Positions 49,295 to 56,081 of a stretch of DNA of 64,000 nucleotides are shown piece after piece. Location of the stretch: assembly GCA_020829485.1 (NCBI GenBank), contig JAIVFU010000023.1, positions 1-64,000 of the forward strand, in the 5' to 3' direction. Position 1 is the stretch's first letter; every line of letters starts with the position of its first letter. The translations under genes and the position numbers were made by a program. The notes under the pieces were generated by a model that was not told where the DNA came from, searched no databases, and saw only the letters and a list, made by a program, of their open reading frames with translations. Origin of the DNA: Nostoc sp. CHAB 5834. GTDB taxonomy: Bacteria > Cyanobacteriota > Cyanobacteriia > Cyanobacteriales > Nostocaceae.

Positions 49295-50269
49295 ATGCTG
49301 AAGATGGATAGTGTTGTGGGTGAGACTGTGTTTTTCAGCGTTGTGATACCGACTTATAATCGCCAACCGATTTTAGAAAAGTGCCTCCGCGCCTTGGAGG
49401 TGCAGGAGTTGAATCAGCCAAGTTCGGTTACTGATTACGAGATTGTCTTGGTAGATGATGGTTCTACTGATGGCACATTGGAGTGGTTAGCAGAACACAA
49501 AGAAGAATTTCCCCATGTGCGCTGGTTTGGGCAAGATCATGCTGGCCCTGCTGCGGCGCGGAATCTGGGAGTAGAACAGGCGCAGGGAGATACGATTATC
49601 TTTATTGATAGTGATTTAGTGGTACTGGATAATTTCTTACAAGCTCACGCTGAGGCGCTAGTGCAGGGACAAGAGAAATTGGGGAGCGATCGCTTTTTCA
49701 CTTACGGTGCAGTTATTAATACTTGTAATTTCAACAACCCAACTGCTGAACCCTACAAAGTCACAGATTTTTCAGCAGCTTTTTTTGCTACGGGAAATGT
49801 AGCAATCCCTAAACATTGGTTAGAGAAAGCCGGACTTTTTGACACCAGTTTTCAACTCTATGGTTGGGAAGATTTAGAACTAGGTGTACGGCTGAAAAAA
49901 CTAGGTTTGACACTAATTAAATGTCCAAAAGCTGTAGGCTATCACTGGCATCCAGCATTTAAATTAGAACAAATTCCCCGATTAATTGACCAAGAAATTC
50001 AACGCGGACGCATGGGAGTTTTGTTTTATCAAAAACATCCCACATGGGAAGTGCGAATGATGATTCAAATGACTTGGCTACATCGCTTACTTTGGGGCAT
50101 TCTCTCACTCAATGGCGCACTTAACGAACGAACGATGGCTCCATTATTGCAATGGCTAATTAACTTAGGTAAACCGCAATTAGCTTTAGAAATTGCCCGA
50201 ATTTTCCTCAACTGGTATAACGTCAAGGGTGTTTATGAAGCCTATGCTCAAATACAGCAAGCATCGTGA
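49295..50269 (+). CDS. Glycosyltransferase family 2
   Basis: Transfers a sugar from an NDP donor to an unknown acceptor. 324 residues, GT-A fold: FSVVIPTYNRQPILEKCLRAL near 14-34, VLVDDGSTDGT near 51-61, AGPAAARNLGVEQAQGD near 82-98, the metal-binding DSDL near 104-107, and the acceptor-site GWEDLELGVRLKKLGL near 189-204. Cytoplasmic with no membrane helix. Product, possibly an exopolysaccharide or glycolipid, cannot be told. Confidence 0.92.
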   Translation: MLKMDSVVGETVFFSVVIPTYNRQPILEKCLRALEVQELNQPSSVTDYEIVLVDDGSTDGTLEWLAEHKEEFPHVRWFGQDHAGPAAARNLGVEQAQGDTIIFIDSDLVVLDNFLQAHAEALVQGQEKLGSDRFFTYGAVINTCNFNNPTAEPYKVTDFSAAFFATGNVAIPKHWLEKAGLFDTSFQLYGWEDLELGVRLKKLGLTLIKCPKAVGYHWHPAFKLEQIPRLIDQEIQRGRMGVLFYQKHPTWEVRMMIQMTWLHRLLWGILSLNGALNERTMAPLLQWLINLGKPQLALEIARIFLNWYNVKGVYEAYAQIQQAS

Positions 50270-50314: not shown

Positions 50315-53086
50315 TTACAAAATCCCTTTTCCTAATACCTTACGCTTCAAAACCAGTATCCGAGGTCTTGCTCCTGTACCTGAAAAACCTAGACCTTCAC
50401 GGAAGATTTCTGGCATATAAAATCGTGCCTCGTTATCCTTTTCCTTATCTTCATAAATAACTCCCATTTCCTCTAGCATTTTCACTGTCTGATGATCCAT
50501 CTTAAACTGTTCTACTGCAAAAGGAATTCTTCGTTCAGAAGGAGGATATTTAGGTAGTGTTACCTCAACCCAAGTTTTGAAATCTGGATACTCATCCTTA
50601 GCTTCTTCCACCTTCTTTTCACTGCATGATTTAAGAGCGCGGCGAATAGCTTGAGGAGGTAAAATACGGCTCGTAGACCACCTTTCAAATTGCACTTCTT
50701 TAGTTCTTTCTACAGTAATATCGGCTGCGTGGAACAAGAAACGAACAATATCTCTCGCTTGAAGTCTACCATTAAAATCTGTCAAAGCTGCAAATATCCA
50801 GGAAGCTGTATATGCTTCTTTAGAGTTATCTAAGCCTAGCCTTTTTCCCCATAATTTTTCTAATCGCTCTATAATATTCTGTTTACTTAAACTATTAATC
50901 TCTACTAGAGATGCATCTATTACTTGAGACTGGCTGCATATCCAAAAGACTAAACGCAAAAAAGAATCTTGATCCCAAGAGAGATCATAAGAAATGTAGA
51001 GATTTTCAAACTGTTTTAAGTTTTGAGTAATTGTATAACGCAGGAAATCACGGCGCACAAAAATTATTACCCCAAGGTTAGACTGCCTAATTTCCGATAA
51101 CTTCTTTGGCAAGTCATCAATCAAAGTTTTTAAGGCAATTTTTTCTTGATTGCTGGATGCAATGTTTGAGAATATATCCTCTAATCCATCAAACAAAAAG
51201 ATAATATGTAAGCCTCTATCTTTCAAATCACGATTTATAGAGCTAAGAATATTAGGACTATGTGTTTCAGGATTCACACCTATAGCTTTTGCAATTTGAC
51301 CAATCCAGAATTCTGTCCATTGTGGTTCACTCCAATTTTCAGTTGCAATGGCTCTTTTAATTCTATCCACATATTCTGAAGGTAGAAACTCAGGAACAGT
51401 ATCTCCCAAGCCTGATATCGCCTCGTTTCTAGCTTCATTAATCACAGTTTTGGCATTATCTTTAATGTTAGTTGATTCAAGGAAAGGAAAGATATGTGTT
51501 TTTAACTGTGATTCCTGAATTGTATTATCTATACGATTCAAAAAACTTTCCCAGTATTTAAAACGTGATAGCTGTATATAGTTAAAGGTTTTTCCTGCAC
51601 CTTTAGCTCCAATTGATACGACATGAGGTAATTCATCTCGAAAATTAGTAGCTAAATTCTTCAATGGTTCTGTTACTAATAAATCTTCTCCCCTTCCTTG
51701 TTCAGCATATTCATATTGTTGACACAAATCTCTGAGTTTACGAACCTCAGCAATTCCTTGATGCTCTTTTGTGGATTTTGACTGTAATTCCTGATCGTTC
51801 GGTATAGCCAACTGTTCTTTAGCCCACTCCTTTGCTACATTCATCACTGAAGTTGGACTTAGTTTTAAGCGGGAATCTTCCCAATTGTTAATGTATAGTA
51901 ATTCTTGGGCAAAATAGGTTTCTTTGATTTCCAATCTTGTCGCATATAAATTATCTTCTTCAGGCTGTGCATAAGCAGACTGAAATCTCACCAATGCATC
52001 TTCAAAGGCTGGTAAAGACTTTAGTTCTGGCATTAACATACTAATTAATAAACACGGCTCGTAATAGCTTTTATCATCAACTCTTTCTTCTGGAGGTGCA
52101 ACTCTACCAATTTGCTCCAAAACAAGACTTGTACCTATAACCGATTGCTCGGTGATTGTTGTCACAAGAAAGCGTTGAATTCTGGGATCAAAAATAATGG
52201 GGCTGGATATTTCACTCAAACCCGCTCTCAAATCAATGAACACATAGTCAGCACCAACAGCCTTACCTAGACTATGAATAGCATTGCCCCATTCCCAAGC
52301 TCCGTCTGGACTTCTAACCAACTGCTCCGGCAGAATAGGTGTATCTAATAGCTGATCATCATCAAGACAGGCAGGTAAAAAATAGACAGTTGATTTTCCT
52401 TCATATTTAGAAGATTTCTTAACTTCTCTGGCAAATAATGAGAGTGTTTGTTCTCTTTCAATAGGAGAATAGTGATAAACTTCAAGAAAATCAATTAAAG
52501 AAACAGATGGTTGCTGCTTTTCTGAACGATTCCAATAGGTAAGACCAGGAGCTTCTAAATCAGCATCAATAACTAATACATTAATAGACAAATCTAGTTC
52601 TTTAGCTCTATCCAGTACAGCAAAAAGATGCGCTGCTAAATTTAATGTTCTACCCACACCACCTTTAAAAGAATAAAAGGCTATTATATTAGGTTTTTCA
52701 GTATAGGCATCTGGAAGCTTAACTTGTTTTTCTATGACATTTTTTATTTCTGAATCATTTTCAATATAAGCAATTTCTTCCCAAAATGGACGTATAGAAA
52801 TATCGATTGTAGGTGCTTCTTCTCCGGGAATAAATTCCACTGGTAATGTAGCATCACCAAGATCAAGTTGTATAACAGACTGATCTTCTTGATACCAGTC
52901 GCCAAACCATTCTTTTAAGGTATTATTGGCGTTTTCTATACTCTGGTCATTTTTCAGACCAATTTCTAAGGCATCTGAGAAACAACGAATTCTTACTACT
53001 CCATCTGGTAGTTTGGTGCCATAGTGGGTTTTGCGGCAAATAGTTCTTCTGACATCAAGCCATGTTAGTAGCCTCAGAGATTTCAT
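50315..53086 (-). CDS. KGGVGR-motif ATPase fused to a second AAA/STAND-like domain
   Basis: 923 residues with two different P-loop domains. The first is ParA/MinD-like: IIAFYSFKGGVGRTLNLAAH near 134-153, where the usual KGGVGKT has Arg in place of Lys, then VLVIDADLEAPGL near 170-181 and YVFIDLRAGLSE near 281. The second has Walker A SIGAKGAGKT near 491-500, Walker B HIIFLFDGLED near 627-637, and a sensor-like VIIFVRRDFLRY near 660. The C-terminal 120 residues look like a winged helix plus a short tail. KGGVGR-variant ATPases are known as a class linked to bacterial conflict-type loci. The gene overlaps the upstream HEPN-like gene by 4 bp (ATGA), implying a coupled pair. Effector, trigger and phenotype are unknown. 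Confidence 0.85.
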   Translation of the reverse strand: MKSLRLLTWLDVRRTICRKTHYGTKLPDGVVRIRCFSDALEIGLKNDQSIENANNTLKEWFGDWYQEDQSVIQLDLGDATLPVEFIPGEEAPTIDISIRPFWEEIAYIENDSEIKNVIEKQVKLPDAYTEKPNIIAFYSFKGGVGRTLNLAAHLFAVLDRAKELDLSINVLVIDADLEAPGLTYWNRSEKQQPSVSLIDFLEVYHYSPIEREQTLSLFAREVKKSSKYEGKSTVYFLPACLDDDQLLDTPILPEQLVRSPDGAWEWGNAIHSLGKAVGADYVFIDLRAGLSEISSPIIFDPRIQRFLVTTITEQSVIGTSLVLEQIGRVAPPEERVDDKSYYEPCLLISMLMPELKSLPAFEDALVRFQSAYAQPEEDNLYATRLEIKETYFAQELLYINNWEDSRLKLSPTSVMNVAKEWAKEQLAIPNDQELQSKSTKEHQGIAEVRKLRDLCQQYEYAEQGRGEDLLVTEPLKNLATNFRDELPHVVSIGAKGAGKTFNYIQLSRFKYWESFLNRIDNTIQESQLKTHIFPFLESTNIKDNAKTVINEARNEAISGLGDTVPEFLPSEYVDRIKRAIATENWSEPQWTEFWIGQIAKAIGVNPETHSPNILSSINRDLKDRGLHIIFLFDGLEDIFSNIASSNQEKIALKTLIDDLPKKLSEIRQSNLGVIIFVRRDFLRYTITQNLKQFENLYISYDLSWDQDSFLRLVFWICSQSQVIDASLVEINSLSKQNIIERLEKLWGKRLGLDNSKEAYTASWIFAALTDFNGRLQARDIVRFLFHAADITVERTKEVQFERWSTSRILPPQAIRRALKSCSEKKVEEAKDEYPDFKTWVEVTLPKYPPSERRIPFAVEQFKMDHQTVKMLEEMGVIYEDKEKDNEARFYMPEIFREGLGFSGTGARPRILVLKRKVLGKGIL

Positions 53087-53532
53087 AGTCTTTTAAGTTC
53101 TCCATCAATCCATTTGACAATTTCTAATAATTTATTTTCTAACGCTTCATCGGTTGTATCTGCTAATGAAGAGCATCCACCATATCGCCACATTTGGTTA
53201 ACTTCTCCAGGAGTAAATTTTCTTTCATCATCCTTGCCACTTTTACCTTTTATTGGTTTCATACTTAGCTGTGCTGGTAATTTCAAATTGTTACCAGCAG
53301 ACAAACAATCTAGTAGCTTGTTCACATCATGTTGGCATTTCTCAATATCTGTACATAAATCTGTACGATTTGTTCGCCGTTTGTCTCTCCGCATCAAAAT
53401 TGCTTTCAAACCACATTCGACTGCATAAAATAAGAGTAACCGATGAGCGTTAGTTCGTGGTGTTATACAAGAAGCTGACCAATTATCTCGCCAAGCTTTC
53501 TCTATTTCTCTATCTGTAAACGGAATTACCAT
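53083..53532 (-). CDS. HEPN-like small protein paired with the KGGVGR ATPase
   Basis: 149 residues. NAHRLLLFYAVECGLKAILM near 28-47 followed by CQHDVNKLLDCL near 66-77 is the two-helix signature of HEPN-type domains (E..LKA.L ... HD...LL). HEPN proteins are often RNases or nucleotidyltransferase partners in toxin and defence systems. The catalytic R-x4-6-H motif is not clearly present; RTNAH near 26-30 is the closest. It could therefore be a ligand-binding or inactive member. First gene of the pair, with a GGTAATTCC-type leader and no obvious ribosome binding site. Confidence 0.6.
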   Translation of the reverse strand: MVIPFTDREIEKAWRDNWSASCITPRTNAHRLLLFYAVECGLKAILMRRDKRRTNRTDLCTDIEKCQHDVNKLLDCLSAGNNLKLPAQLSMKPIKGKSGKDDERKFTPGEVNQMWRYGGCSSLADTTDEALENKLLEIVKWIDGELKRL

Positions 53533-53576: not shown

Positions 53577-56081
53577 TTATGTTAAAATCGCCCCACCCAT
53601 CAATCGCTCATACCGATACTTCAACTCTTCTTTCATTAAATACCAGCGCTCTAAAGTTGCATCCATCTCTATTATTTTCTCTGCTGCTTGCCGCGCTAAA
53701 AGTAAAACTTCTTCATCTTCAACCAAACTCGCTAAGGTAAAATCTGGCACTCCAGATTGACGAGTTCCCAATACTTGCCCAGGCCCACGAAAACGCATAT
53801 CCATTTCAGAGATGAAAAAGCCATCCTGAGATTGTTCCAACACCTTCAGCCGTTGTTGAGCATCAGGACTTCTAGAACTACTCATCAATAGACAATAAGA
53901 CTGAGCCGCACCACGACCGACACGCCCCCGCAGTTGATGGAGTTGCGATAAACCAAATCGCTCCGCATTTTCAATGAGCATTACTGTAGCATTAGGTACG
54001 TCTACGCCTACCTCAACAACGGTAGTAGAAACCAAAATTTGCGTTTGGTTATCACGAAATTTAGTAATCGCTTCATCCTTGTCGGCTGAACTCATGCGAC
54101 CATGCAGCAGCCCAACTTGAAAATCGGGAAAAACGCTTTCTTGTAACTTTTGATGCTCCTCAACAGCCGATCGCAGATCCAGTTTTTCTGATTCTTCCAC
54201 TAAGGGTAAAACCACATAAACTTGTCTACCTTGGACAATTTCTCTGCGGATGAGGTCGTAAGCATGGTTGCGTTGCTGACCTGACAATACTGTTGTCTGA
54301 ATCTTTTGTCGTCCCGGCGGTAACTCATCAATTTGGCTCACATCCAAATCCCCGTGTATCGTCAGTGCTAAGGTTCGGGGAATGGGAGTGGCTGTCATAG
54401 TCAACACATGGGGTTGCTCACCTTTTTGCTGCAAACGCGCCCGTTGTTCTACCCCAAAGCGATGCTGTTCATCAATCACCACTAACCCCAGTTGATGAAA
54501 GTTTACGGGGTCTTGAATTAAGGCATGGGTTCCGACTAACAGGGGTAATTCACCAGTTCCTAACTGGGAATGTATTTGTCTTCGTTTAGCAGCTTTAGTA
54601 GAACCTGTAAGTAATTCCACTGGTAAATGCAGTAGATTAAACCAGCTAACTAACTTGCGATAATGTTGTTCTGCTAAAACTTCTGTGGGAGCCATCAGCG
54701 CCGCTTGATAGCCAGATTGAATTGCTGCAAGGATAGCTAGCACGGCGACGACTGTTTTACCGGAACCGACATCACCTTGCACCAAACGATTCATTGGTAC
54801 GGGTTTCTGTAAATCGTTGAGGATATCGTTGAGAACTCTTTGCTGTGCGCCAGTAAGTTGAAAAGGCAATATTTCGTGGAATTTCTCTACAAGTTGACCG
54901 CGTGGAACCAGGATGGCGCTGGTTTGAATCGCCCTTGCTTGCTGCTGACGTTGCAGTAACCCAAGTTGTAGATAGAAAAATTCATCAAAAACTAGGCGGC
55001 GACGGGCAACTTGTAGGGCGGCGCTATCGCTAGGAAAATGGATATTAGCGATCGCATCTTTCAATTCCATCAAACCATACTTCTGTCGCAAACCACTTGG
55101 CAAAGGGTCTTTCAAGTTAGCAGCAGCAGGTAAAGCAGCTATTACCGCCTGTCGCACTGTATTCGCCACTACGCCTTCTGTCAGCCCATAAATTGGCACT
55201 ACCCGTCCAATATTTAGCGACTCAATCGAATCTCCTGGATTTGCCAAAACCTCTAGTTCTGGATTATCGAGTGTCAAGCCGTATTTACTTTCTTTCACTA
55301 ACCCACATGCCGCCAAAATACTACCTACTGGATAACGGCGTTTTAAACTTTCTTGCCAAGCGCGACTGCTAAAGCGTGTACCTGCATAAAAACGACCAAT
55401 TTTGATTTGGCCACTGTTATCTTTTACTACCAATTCTAAAATTGATAATTTCTGATTTTTAGGGCTAGTAAAGCAGTTACAACGCTTCACTGTAGCCACT
55501 ATTGTCACCGCCTCACCTGCTTGTAACTCGCGGATATTCACCTGACGCGCATAATCAATGTGGTCACGAGGATAGTAGAAAAGCAAATCGCGGACAGTGT
55601 GTAAACCAAGCCGTGCCAAATTATCAGCTTTTTTAAAACCTATTTCTGGCAAATCACTGAGTTTTTGCTCAATGTTCGGTGCCAGCCTCCGACTCACCTC
55701 AGCAACAATTGGAGATTTTGGGTCGCGCCTTTGGTGCGCTGGAAGCGCAACTTGAATTTTGAACTGATTAATTCTCCCCTGCTCCTCTGCTCCCCTGCTC
55801 CCCTGCTCGTCTTGCTGTAGTTGGGAGAGATATCTCCGAGTCTCTGCTACTAAATGTTGTCTTTCTTCCAGTGCTAGATGTGGATAACTAGCAAATTGCA
55901 CCGCTAGTCCTTGCCAACGGCGGCGTTCAGTTTGGGGTAAGCCTGTTGGGAATTTGCCTAAAGTTAGACTAAGAAATTCACTGAAGCGGTATTCTCTGCC
56001 CATCAAGTCTGTAAAGCCGCGTTCCGCTTCTATTGCCAAGGCTTTGTGCAATCTTATCCAATCTGGTTTTTCATTAGTCAT
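53577..56081 (-). CDS. recG: ATP-dependent DNA helicase RecG
   Basis: Rescues stalled replication forks by driving fork reversal and branch migration. 834 residues. N-terminal cyanobacterial extension (1-150), wedge/OB domain (LPEIGFKKADNLARLGLHTV, FYYPRDHIDYAR), then motifs VQGDVGSGKTVVA (I), LAEQHYRKL (Ia), VVIDEQHRFGVEQR (II, DEQH), MTATPIPRTLAL (III), GLLHGRMSSADKDEAI and VSTTVVEVGVDVPNA, QLRGRVGRGAAQSYCLL (VI). Residues about 91-103 (EQGSRGAEEQGR) are encoded by CCCCTGCTC-type repeats at 55774-55810, in frame. Confidence 0.96.
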   Translation of the reverse strand: MTNEKPDWIRLHKALAIEAERGFTDLMGREYRFSEFLSLTLGKFPTGLPQTERRRWQGLAVQFASYPHLALEERQHLVAETRRYLSQLQQDEQGSRGAEEQGRINQFKIQVALPAHQRRDPKSPIVAEVSRRLAPNIEQKLSDLPEIGFKKADNLARLGLHTVRDLLFYYPRDHIDYARQVNIRELQAGEAVTIVATVKRCNCFTSPKNQKLSILELVVKDNSGQIKIGRFYAGTRFSSRAWQESLKRRYPVGSILAACGLVKESKYGLTLDNPELEVLANPGDSIESLNIGRVVPIYGLTEGVVANTVRQAVIAALPAAANLKDPLPSGLRQKYGLMELKDAIANIHFPSDSAALQVARRRLVFDEFFYLQLGLLQRQQQARAIQTSAILVPRGQLVEKFHEILPFQLTGAQQRVLNDILNDLQKPVPMNRLVQGDVGSGKTVVAVLAILAAIQSGYQAALMAPTEVLAEQHYRKLVSWFNLLHLPVELLTGSTKAAKRRQIHSQLGTGELPLLVGTHALIQDPVNFHQLGLVVIDEQHRFGVEQRARLQQKGEQPHVLTMTATPIPRTLALTIHGDLDVSQIDELPPGRQKIQTTVLSGQQRNHAYDLIRREIVQGRQVYVVLPLVEESEKLDLRSAVEEHQKLQESVFPDFQVGLLHGRMSSADKDEAITKFRDNQTQILVSTTVVEVGVDVPNATVMLIENAERFGLSQLHQLRGRVGRGAAQSYCLLMSSSRSPDAQQRLKVLEQSQDGFFISEMDMRFRGPGQVLGTRQSGVPDFTLASLVEDEEVLLLARQAAEKIIEMDATLERWYLMKEELKYRYERLMGGAILT

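What the first reader, a model, noticed from the sequence alone, without database searches (positions are those of the whole stretch)
50315..53532. Two-gene KGGVGR-ATPase / HEPN-like module: candidate conflict or defence system
Seen: two overlapping leftward genes (ATGA overlap). The first encodes a small HEPN-like helical protein. The second encodes a 923-residue protein with a MinD/ParA-like domain whose P-loop reads KGGVGRT instead of KGGVGKT, plus a second P-loop NTPase domain with GAKGAGKT and FLFDGLED. Known: KGGVGR-variant ATPases and HEPN proteins each recur in NTP-dependent prokaryotic conflict systems. Inferred: the ATPase senses or licenses and the HEPN-like protein is effector or ligand sensor. 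The combination of two different P-loop domains in one chain with a separate HEPN-like partner is, to me, not a described system.
Basis: partly seen in the sequence, partly recalled or inferred. Interest (0 to 1): 0.8.

Follow-up and report, generated by a model that had tools for sequence, protein, structure and literature searches.

The report
HEPN–ATPase defence module with phage-borne fragments
A cyanobacterium carries a two-gene unit that looks like an anti-virus alarm-and-weapon pair, and viruses of a related bloom-forming cyanobacterium carry cut-down copies of part of it, which suggests a host–virus arms race that can be tested directly.

Summary
In detail: two intact, ATGA-overlapping leftward genes. 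The 149-aa protein has a HEPN fold (AF2 pLDDT 92.4) but lacks the canonical Rx4-6H motif; E39, K43, H68 and R116 are present in 70 of 70 relatives. The 923-aa protein joins a KGGVGR-type MinD/ParA domain to a second, Sll1717/ORC-like P-loop domain. In 72 of 78 testable loci found with the HEPN alone, the ATPase follows directly; 42 of 80 loci are non-cyanobacterial. Split three-gene relatives match PADLOC's untested candidate PDC-M28; this is a fused variant.

Two clues favour antiviral function. One complete module lies in a P2-like phage contig between portal and replication genes, a published antiviral hotspot. And Microcystis phage Mic1 and 11 viral contigs carry standalone copies of the second ATPase domain; their Walker-B half is under purifying selection, while no constraint was detectable on the P-loop part. 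I read these as probable decoys.

Against: no clear defence-island enrichment, no plasmid hit, no experiment; several phage copies keep Walker A. Most likely a nucleotide-gated HEPN defence module: a new variant of a known (candidate) kind.

The parts
53083..53532 (-). 149-aa HEPN-fold protein, first gene of the pair
53404..53418 (-). HEPN Ex3K motif, residues E39-K43 (ECGLK)
   Evidence: E39 and K43 in 70 of 70 aligned relatives
53329..53331 (-). invariant H68 of the HEPN protein, candidate alternative active-site histidine
   Evidence: 70 of 70; alternative-His idea from PMC3710099 for AbiV and AF0298 (passages)
53182..53187 (-). invariant R116-Y117 (WRYGG)
   Evidence: 70 of 70
50315..53086 (-). 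923-aa two-ATPase protein, second gene, ATGA-overlapped with the HEPN gene
   Evidence: AF2 model pLDDT 85.3, pTM 0.61
52757..53086 (-). N-terminal small alpha+beta domain of the ATPase (about residues 1-110), no family match found
   Evidence: secondary structure of the AF2 model; no Pfam match there
51806..52702 (-). KGGVGR-type MinD/ParA domain (residues 129-427)
52646..52666 (-). variant P-loop KGGVGRT (residues 141-147); R146 invariant in the 61 aligned orthologues
50927..51670 (-). second P-loop NTPase domain (about residues 473-720), Sll1717/ORC-CDC6-like
   Evidence: NF047389 E 7e-17 below cut-off; ORC2 1w5t among Foldseek matches
51587..51610 (-). second Walker A, GAKGAGKT (residues 493-500)
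   Evidence: G493, K495, G496, G498, K499, T500 invariant in 61 aligned orthologues
51176..51199 (-). second Walker B, FLFDGLED (residues 630-637)
   Evidence: D633, G634, E636 invariant in 61 aligned orthologues
50987..51649 (-). part of the ATPase (residues 480-700) whose relatives Microcystis phage Mic1 and viral contigs carry as a standalone gene
   Evidence: hhalign E 5.3e-43 between Mic1_05 and the ATPase alignment
50315..50926 (-). helical C-terminal part (residues 720-923) with invariant R778, D779, R782
53577..56081 (-). recG, the upstream neighbour of the module in 19 of 80 loci (all cyanobacterial)

Best explanation
A two-gene antiviral module. The fused protein is a nucleotide-driven sensor/switch: the KGGVGR MinD/ParA domain probably dimerises around ATP, and the second ORC/STAND-like domain with its helical C-terminus probably assembles or recognises an infection cue. 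The co-translated HEPN protein is the effector, a non-classical HEPN using E39/K43, H68 and R116 to cut or block RNA once the ATPase releases or activates it, so that the infected cell stops growing. Some Microcystis phages answer by carrying only the second ATPase domain, which likely poisons the host assembly as a decoy. Shown: gene structure, predicted folds, invariant residues, conserved pairing, one copy at a phage hotspot, the phage-borne domain and its selection pattern. Inferred: antiviral action, the effector's activity, the direction of control and the decoy role.
For: HEPN fold; E39, K43, H68, R116, Y117 in 70 of 70 and no Rx4-6H column pair in more than 4 of 70. Pairing in 72 of 78 testable loci and in 17 of 18 hits of a second survey of 292 cyanobacterial genomes. 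Three-gene relatives match PADLOC PDC-M28A/B/C (L133: E 2e-13, 2e-66, 2e-80), that set lying beside a CBASS cyclase and SAVED effector, another (L134) about 2 kb from a second, fused module. One complete module on a P2-like phage contig between portal (phrog_68) and replication gene A (phrog_91), the cos-proximal antiviral hotspot described in PMC9122126 (passages). Standalone copies of about residues 480-700 in phage Mic1 and 11 IMG/VR contigs; core part dN/dS 0.09-0.28 among six distinct copies, P-loop part 0.48-1.76 with no pair significantly below 1. Patchy presence with scars in 5 of 35 genus genomes, two of them weak; divergent alleles at one site.
Against: No experiment. Defence-island test inconclusive and without control: in 138 neighbour genes of 32 non-cyanobacterial loci, 88 PADLOC families matched at E 1e-20, of which 70 come from three proteins at two loci (L062 type I R-M, L055 DpdE-like helicase); the other 18 families were not traced. 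No plasmid match. Beside recG in 19 loci the module looks resident rather than mobile. The HEPN lacks the canonical RNase motif. Several phage copies keep the Walker A consensus (14 of 31 database fragments; L142, L185, L186), so 'P-loop-dead decoy' is not general. One host pair (L019/L018, 6 changes) also shows no constraint in the P-loop part (1.34).
Confidence: 0.6

Rival explanations
1. A toxin-antitoxin addiction module rather than a phage sensor: the HEPN protein is a constitutive toxin and the ATPase its antitoxin, as proposed in 2013 for MAE_18760 HEPN + ParA/Soj dyads.
For: HEPN + SIMIBI ATPase dyad with that proposal (PMC3710099, passages); small effector-like gene first; ATGA overlap in 37 of 65 loci.
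Against: HEPN genes survive without a whole ATPase beside them: L033 has a full-length HEPN with all motif residues and no adjacent ATPase, and L007, L009, L010 keep only the N-half; the rest of those genomes was not checked for another ATPase. No plasmid copy found. The ATPase is six times the size of the HEPN, unlike a typical antitoxin (recalled). Phage capture of one ATPase domain is not predicted.
Confidence: 0.2
2. The phage fragments are not counter-defence but a phage function of their own, such as the plasmid-partition ParA claimed for Mic1, or an exclusion factor against competing phages.
For: The Mic1 genome paper calls ORF5 ParA and builds a ParABS/lysogeny argument on it with a parS-like palindrome and a ParB gene (PMC7156551, passages); a later paper repeats it (PMC11237433, passages). 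Purifying selection shows only that the protein does something.
Against: The fragment aligns to the second, non-ParA domain (profile positions 486-703, E 5.3e-43) and covers no MinD/ParA part; the annotation probably comes from full-length host proteins named ParA family (names). No HEPN or KGGVGR homologue among the genes read in the phage stretches.
Confidence: 0.3
3. A housekeeping or DNA-repair-linked module tied to recG.
For: recG lies within 500 bp upstream in 19 of the 80 loci and the short gap in the window (44 bp) would allow co-transcription.
Against: No non-cyanobacterial locus showed recG (tblastn E 1e-20, flanks up to 10 kb where held); intact module at recG in 0 of 35 genus relatives although recG is in all 35; module GC 36.5% against 41.6% for the window, rank 3 of 122 windows; alleles at the same site diverge far more than recG (L017: recG 4.5%, HEPN 41%, ATPase 25%).
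Confidence: 0.08

Closest known systems
PADLOC candidate system PDC-M28 (A, B, C; untested phage defence candidate)
   Same: HEPN-like A, KGGVGR ATPase B, second P-loop ATPase C in that order in L133 and L134; window ATPase matches M28B (E 4e-14) and M28C (E 1.5e-10), three-gene relatives match all three more strongly
   Different: B and C fused in one chain here; the window HEPN matches M28A only at E 0.0099; identity to fused and split cousins is about 25-31% over partial matches
MAE_18760-family HEPN + ParA/Soj ATPase dyad (Anantharaman et al. 2013, PMC3710099)
   Same: HEPN gene next to a SIMIBI-fold ATPase gene, predicted conflict module
   Different: That family keeps Rx4-6H (Table 1 passage); this one does not. 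No second P-loop domain is mentioned in the passages seen
AbiV / AF0298-type HEPN (alternative histidine)
   Same: Ex3K plus a conserved His N-terminal to a conserved basic residue, no Rx4-6H; HEPNs of the three-gene relatives match Pfam HEPN above its cut-off, and one (L134) matches PADLOC AbiV at E 0.019
   Different: No match of the window protein to AbiV or Pfam HEPN; of 70 relatives one matched Pfam HEPN (E 0.004)
AP-ATPase with an additional MinD/ParA-like domain in FxSxx peptide-processing systems (PMC7159879, passages)
   Same: MinD/ParA-like and STAND-type P-loops together in a conflict system
   Different: There linked to peptidase/peptide genes, with the MinD/ParA part predicted inactive; here linked to HEPN
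PrrC/RloC and other ATPase-gated HEPN nucleases
   Same: NTPase gates a HEPN effector (PMC3710099, passages)
   Different: There an ABC-type NTPase fused to the HEPN; here a separate HEPN and a different pair of ATPase folds

Membership tests
HEPN superfamily | HEPN helical fold | tested here: met
HEPN superfamily | Ex3[KR] motif | tested here: met
   E39 and K43 in 70 of 70
HEPN superfamily, catalytic type | Rx4-6H RNase motif | tested here: not met
   best column pair in 4 of 70
PDC-M28 | match to M28B and M28C profiles | tested here: met
   E 4e-14 and 1.5e-10, best stretches residues 129-201 and 740-874 only; PADLOC table gives no curated cut-off
PDC-M28 | match to M28A profile by the small gene | tested here: inconclusive
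   E 0.0099; profile comparison of the window family with three relatives E 1e-4, probability 57.5%
PDC-M28 | three separate genes A, B, C | tested here: not met
   B and C fused; split form seen in L133 and L134
MAE_18760 HEPN/ParA dyad | HEPN with Rx4-6H next to ParA/Soj ATPase | tested here: not met
   adjacency yes, motif no; no MAE_18760 profile among the 25 of 31 Pfam families shown for 70 members
MinD/ParA ATPases | MinD/ParA fold and first (signature) lysine of the deviant Walker A | tested here: met
MinD/ParA ATPases | second Walker A lysine (KGGxGK) | tested here: not met
   R146 in all 61 aligned
ORC/STAND-type NTPase (second domain) | Walker A and B plus ORC/STAND fold | tested here: inconclusive
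   motifs invariant; NF047389 below cut-off; ORC2 1w5t at rank 34, E 1.8e-4; PF24389 ORC-CDC6-like below cut-off in the split form
Anti-phage defence system | protects a host from phage | not testable with these tools
   no experiment
Anti-phage defence system | sits in defence islands or phage hotspots | tested here: inconclusive
   few traced defence neighbours, no control; CBASS neighbour for a split relative; P2-type hotspot in one phage contig

The most novel reading that the evidence does not exclude
Microcystis phages have captured the second ATPase domain of this HEPN–ATPase module from their host and keep it as a dedicated counter-defence protein: a dominant-negative or decoy whose binding half is under purifying selection while its nucleotide-binding loop decays. 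The phage gene now annotated ParA in Mic1 would then be an inhibitor of a KGGVGR/HEPN system (none is known to me), and evidence that this system is a real antiviral device in cyanobacteria.
Probability: 0.45. Interest if true: 0.8.

Novelty: new variant of a known kind. Interest (0 to 1): 0.62.

Why it matters
If right, an uncharacterised candidate system spread over many phyla gains a mechanism-level hypothesis (nucleotide-gated, non-classical HEPN), and a matching phage gene gains a likely function. The pair module/fragment can be tested with two plasmids and a phage panel. It would also correct a published inference: the Mic1 'ParA' that was used to argue for a partition system and lysogeny aligns to a non-ParA domain.

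Tried and rejected
Defence-island enrichment: 138 of the 183 neighbour genes collected from non-cyanobacterial loci were scanned (capped by residues; 32 of 41 loci). At E 1e-20, 88 PADLOC families matched, 25 shown. Ten of the 138 proteins were scanned one by one: three of them, at L062 and L055, account for 70 families (6 + 44 + 20); the other 18 families, HEC-05 and a type II methylase among them, were not traced. The commonest Pfam domains were HNH_2 in 4 of 138, Peptidase_M28 3, HD 3 (25 of 177 families shown). The 195 cyanobacterial neighbour genes collected were not scanned, so there is no control and I claim neither enrichment nor its absence.

Vertical inheritance with recG: Mantel r 0.53 (ATPase) and 0.43 (HEPN) over 13 loci, so residence looks old but alleles are exchanged; I rejected both 'purely vertical' and 'freely mobile'.

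Sequence searches with the HEPN alignment in Pfam and solved structures gave chance-level hits, apart from one of 70 members on Pfam HEPN at E 0.004. The VIA-align list for the ATPase covers almost only residues 129-427, so the absence of relatives of the second domain there means nothing. An early idea that all phage copies are P-loop-dead was dropped after L142, L185, L186 and 14 of 31 database fragments kept the Walker A consensus.

Literature: 'KGGVGR' 0 papers, 'PDC-M28' 0, 'sll1717' 0; HEPN + MinD + anti-phage + ATPase 2 papers, listing only; phage + HEPN + ParA-like + defense + operon 2 papers, one seen in passages; a search on phage-encoded decoys gave 0. Papers seen as passages only: PMC3710099, PMC9122126, PMC7156551, PMC11237433, PMC7159879, PMC11514479, PMC12839542. 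Only this open-licence library was searched.
Full report
OBSERVATION. The two genes are present and intact: HEPN-like, 149 aa, 53083..53532 (-), and ATPase, 923 aa, 50315..53086 (-), with ATGA overlap. They lie between recG (53577..56081, -) and a family-2 glycosyltransferase gene (49295..50269, +). The module has 36.5% GC against 41.6% for the window (rank 3 of 122 windows of 3.2 kb) and GC3 0.23-0.25 against 0.38-0.45 in four flanking genes. The window's own assembly is not held; the nearest named ATPase homologues are from Nostoc.

PAIRING. A scan of genome contigs with the HEPN alignment alone gave 120 relatives, of which the best 80 were kept; 42 of the 80 are non-cyanobacterial by record title (my sorting). 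Downstream: 62 have an ORF with both ATPase halves (in L044 it breaks off after 703 aa and the rest follows in a second ORF); 3 more are cut by the contig end; 7 have the KGGVGR half adjacent without the C-half in the same ORF (L079 at a contig end; in L031 and L061 the rest follows in another ORF); 2 are in-frame remnant fusions; 4 have a HEPN without the adjacent ATPase half; 2 have no room. So 72 of 78 testable loci keep the pair, and the 6 that do not are all cyanobacterial. The ATGA overlap is in 37 of 65. A second survey, on another genome set that may share species, found the HEPN in 18 of 292 cyanobacterial genomes, 17 of 18 with the KGGVGR half directly next to it; L170 is the exception and L172 carries an internal stop.

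RELATION TO PDC-M28. PADLOC models of the candidate system PDC-M28 match the window ATPase in part (M28B E 4e-14; M28C E 1.5e-10) and the HEPN weakly (E 0.0099). In two cyanobacterial genomes three-gene sets were read, HEPN 143 aa, KGGVGR about 460 aa, ATPase about 498 aa, with strong M28A/B/C matches and Pfam HEPN matches above cut-off. One set (L133) lies beside a CBASS cyclase (E 1e-158) and a SAVED endonuclease; the other (L134) lies about 2 kb from a second, fused module whose HEPN also matches M28A (E 1e-8). PDC-M28C was found in 27 of 292 cyanobacterial genomes and 0 of 14 controls. No paper in the library searched holds 'PDC-M28' or 'KGGVGR'; PDC stands for 'phage defence candidate' (PMC11514479, passages). 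I file the window pair as a fused variant of that candidate kind.

SITE AND TURNOVER. In 19 of the 80 loci the window's recG orthologue ends within 500 bp upstream of the HEPN gene, all in cyanobacteria; in three more (L004, L010, L013) it is farther away. Among 35 genus relatives (G001-G035) none has the module intact at recG; five carry scars: G019 (HEPN 1-67 plus ATPase 830-923), G029 (last 72 nt of the ATPase gene), G015 (113 nt), and two weak ones, G032 (28 nt) and G008 (35 nt), the last three all beginning at ATPase nucleotide 718. Another genome of the genus, G216, does carry HEPN and ATPase. Alleles are exchanged: L017 differs from the window by 4.5% in recG but 41% in HEPN and 25% in ATPase, while L001 differs by 2.7, 7.4 and 5.1%. 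I read this as repeated loss and allele replacement at a long-held address.

PHAGE-CONTIG COPY. One IMG/VR contig (L141, also L156) holds HEPN (158 aa) and ATPase (895 aa, 36% identical to the query) between a portal gene (phrog_68, E 3e-144) and a replication gene A (phrog_91, E 4e-250). Rousset et al. 2022 (PMC9122126, passages) describe the interval between portal gpQ and replication gpA of P2-like phages as a hotspot of anti-phage systems. That this contig is P2-like is my reading of its gene content, and it is a single case.

PHAGE-BORNE FRAGMENTS. tblastn of the ATPase against 50,697 phage records gave one hit, Microcystis phage Mic1 gene Mic1_05 (206 aa, annotated ParA). It aligns to the second ATPase domain only (E 5.3e-43). 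A 206-aa BFVD model, A0A4Y5TPT2, 38% identical and taken by me to be the same protein, matches the predicted fold (TM 0.87 by target length). Scans of viral contigs found standalone copies in 11 further contigs: L137 and L138 (one mismatch in 6886 bases), L139, L140, L185 and L142 (cut by the contig end) in the Mic1-type neighbourhood, and L186-L190 with one identical 251-aa protein in another neighbourhood where I saw ribonucleotide reductase but no structural gene. A twelfth contig, L201, ends 19 residues into such a match. Over the core part six distinct copies are 71-86% identical to the Microcystis host ATPase L019 and 58-66% to another Microcystis copy, L016; four of them are 40-44% identical to the window's. 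In the protein database 31 fragments (P0241-P0271, some of them the same phage copies; hosts mostly unnamed) were found, 27 of 31 ending five residues after QFExLY; Walker A consensus kept in 14, broken in 13, segment absent in 4; the host's invariant R678 is His in 24 of 31. Pairwise Nei-Gojobori estimates on six distinct phage copies: core part (128 codons, towards Walker B and QFE) dN/dS 0.09-0.28, p from 1e-7 to 0.016; P-loop part (with L142) 0.48-1.76, no pair significantly below 1 (smallest p 0.07). Host pairs L019/L016 and L016/L018: core 0.16 and 0.15, P-loop part 0.29 and 0.36, all significant; the third host pair, L019/L018, has too few changes (P-loop part 1.34, not significant). 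Pairs are not independent and numbers of changes are small. The simplest reading is that the phages keep a binding surface, not an ATPase.

MECHANISM. I commit to a nucleotide-gated sensor (ATPase) controlling a non-classical HEPN effector, with growth arrest of the infected cell as outcome (0.6 for an antiviral module in general; the order of events is inference). A toxin-antitoxin reading (0.2) is weakened by L033, a full-length HEPN with all motif residues and no adjacent ATPase, and by loci with half an ATPase. The Mic1 papers' ParA/partition reading of ORF5 (PMC7156551 and PMC11237433, passages) is not supported by the domain assignment.

AGAINST. The defence-island test is inconclusive; no plasmid copy was found with the window HEPN or the L141 ATPase; there is one phage-contig copy of the whole module; no assay exists. 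Novelty: a fused variant of a catalogued but untested candidate, plus a phage-side finding that I did not meet in the Mic1 passages seen or in the listing.

Noticed in passing
L096:4031-4651 (Microcystis phage Mic1, gene Mic1_05): Annotated ParA and used in print to argue for a ParABS partition system; by alignment it is the second, non-ParA domain of the host HEPN-linked ATPase.
   Followed up: yes
L133:1473-4219: CBASS cyclase and SAVED endonuclease genes directly beside a split three-gene PDC-M28-like module in a genome of the window's genus.
   Followed up: partly
L134:4716-13347: A fused and a split module of the same kind lie about 2 kb apart in one genome.
   Followed up: no
L058:10001-10501 and L036:10001-10891: In-frame remnants joining the HEPN start to a late or early part of the ATPase, still open reading frames; might be decay products or small functional leftovers.
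   Followed up: no
L127, L108, L113: Three genus relatives keep short ATPase scars that all begin at the same nucleotide (718) next to recG, suggesting one shared deletion; two of the three are weak matches.
   Followed up: partly
L185:4944-5786: One phage copy is longer (280 aa) and runs 43 residues past QFENLY, possibly a more recent capture.
   Followed up: no
L033:10001-10465: Full-length HEPN with all conserved residues but no adjacent ATPase, beside recG.
   Followed up: no
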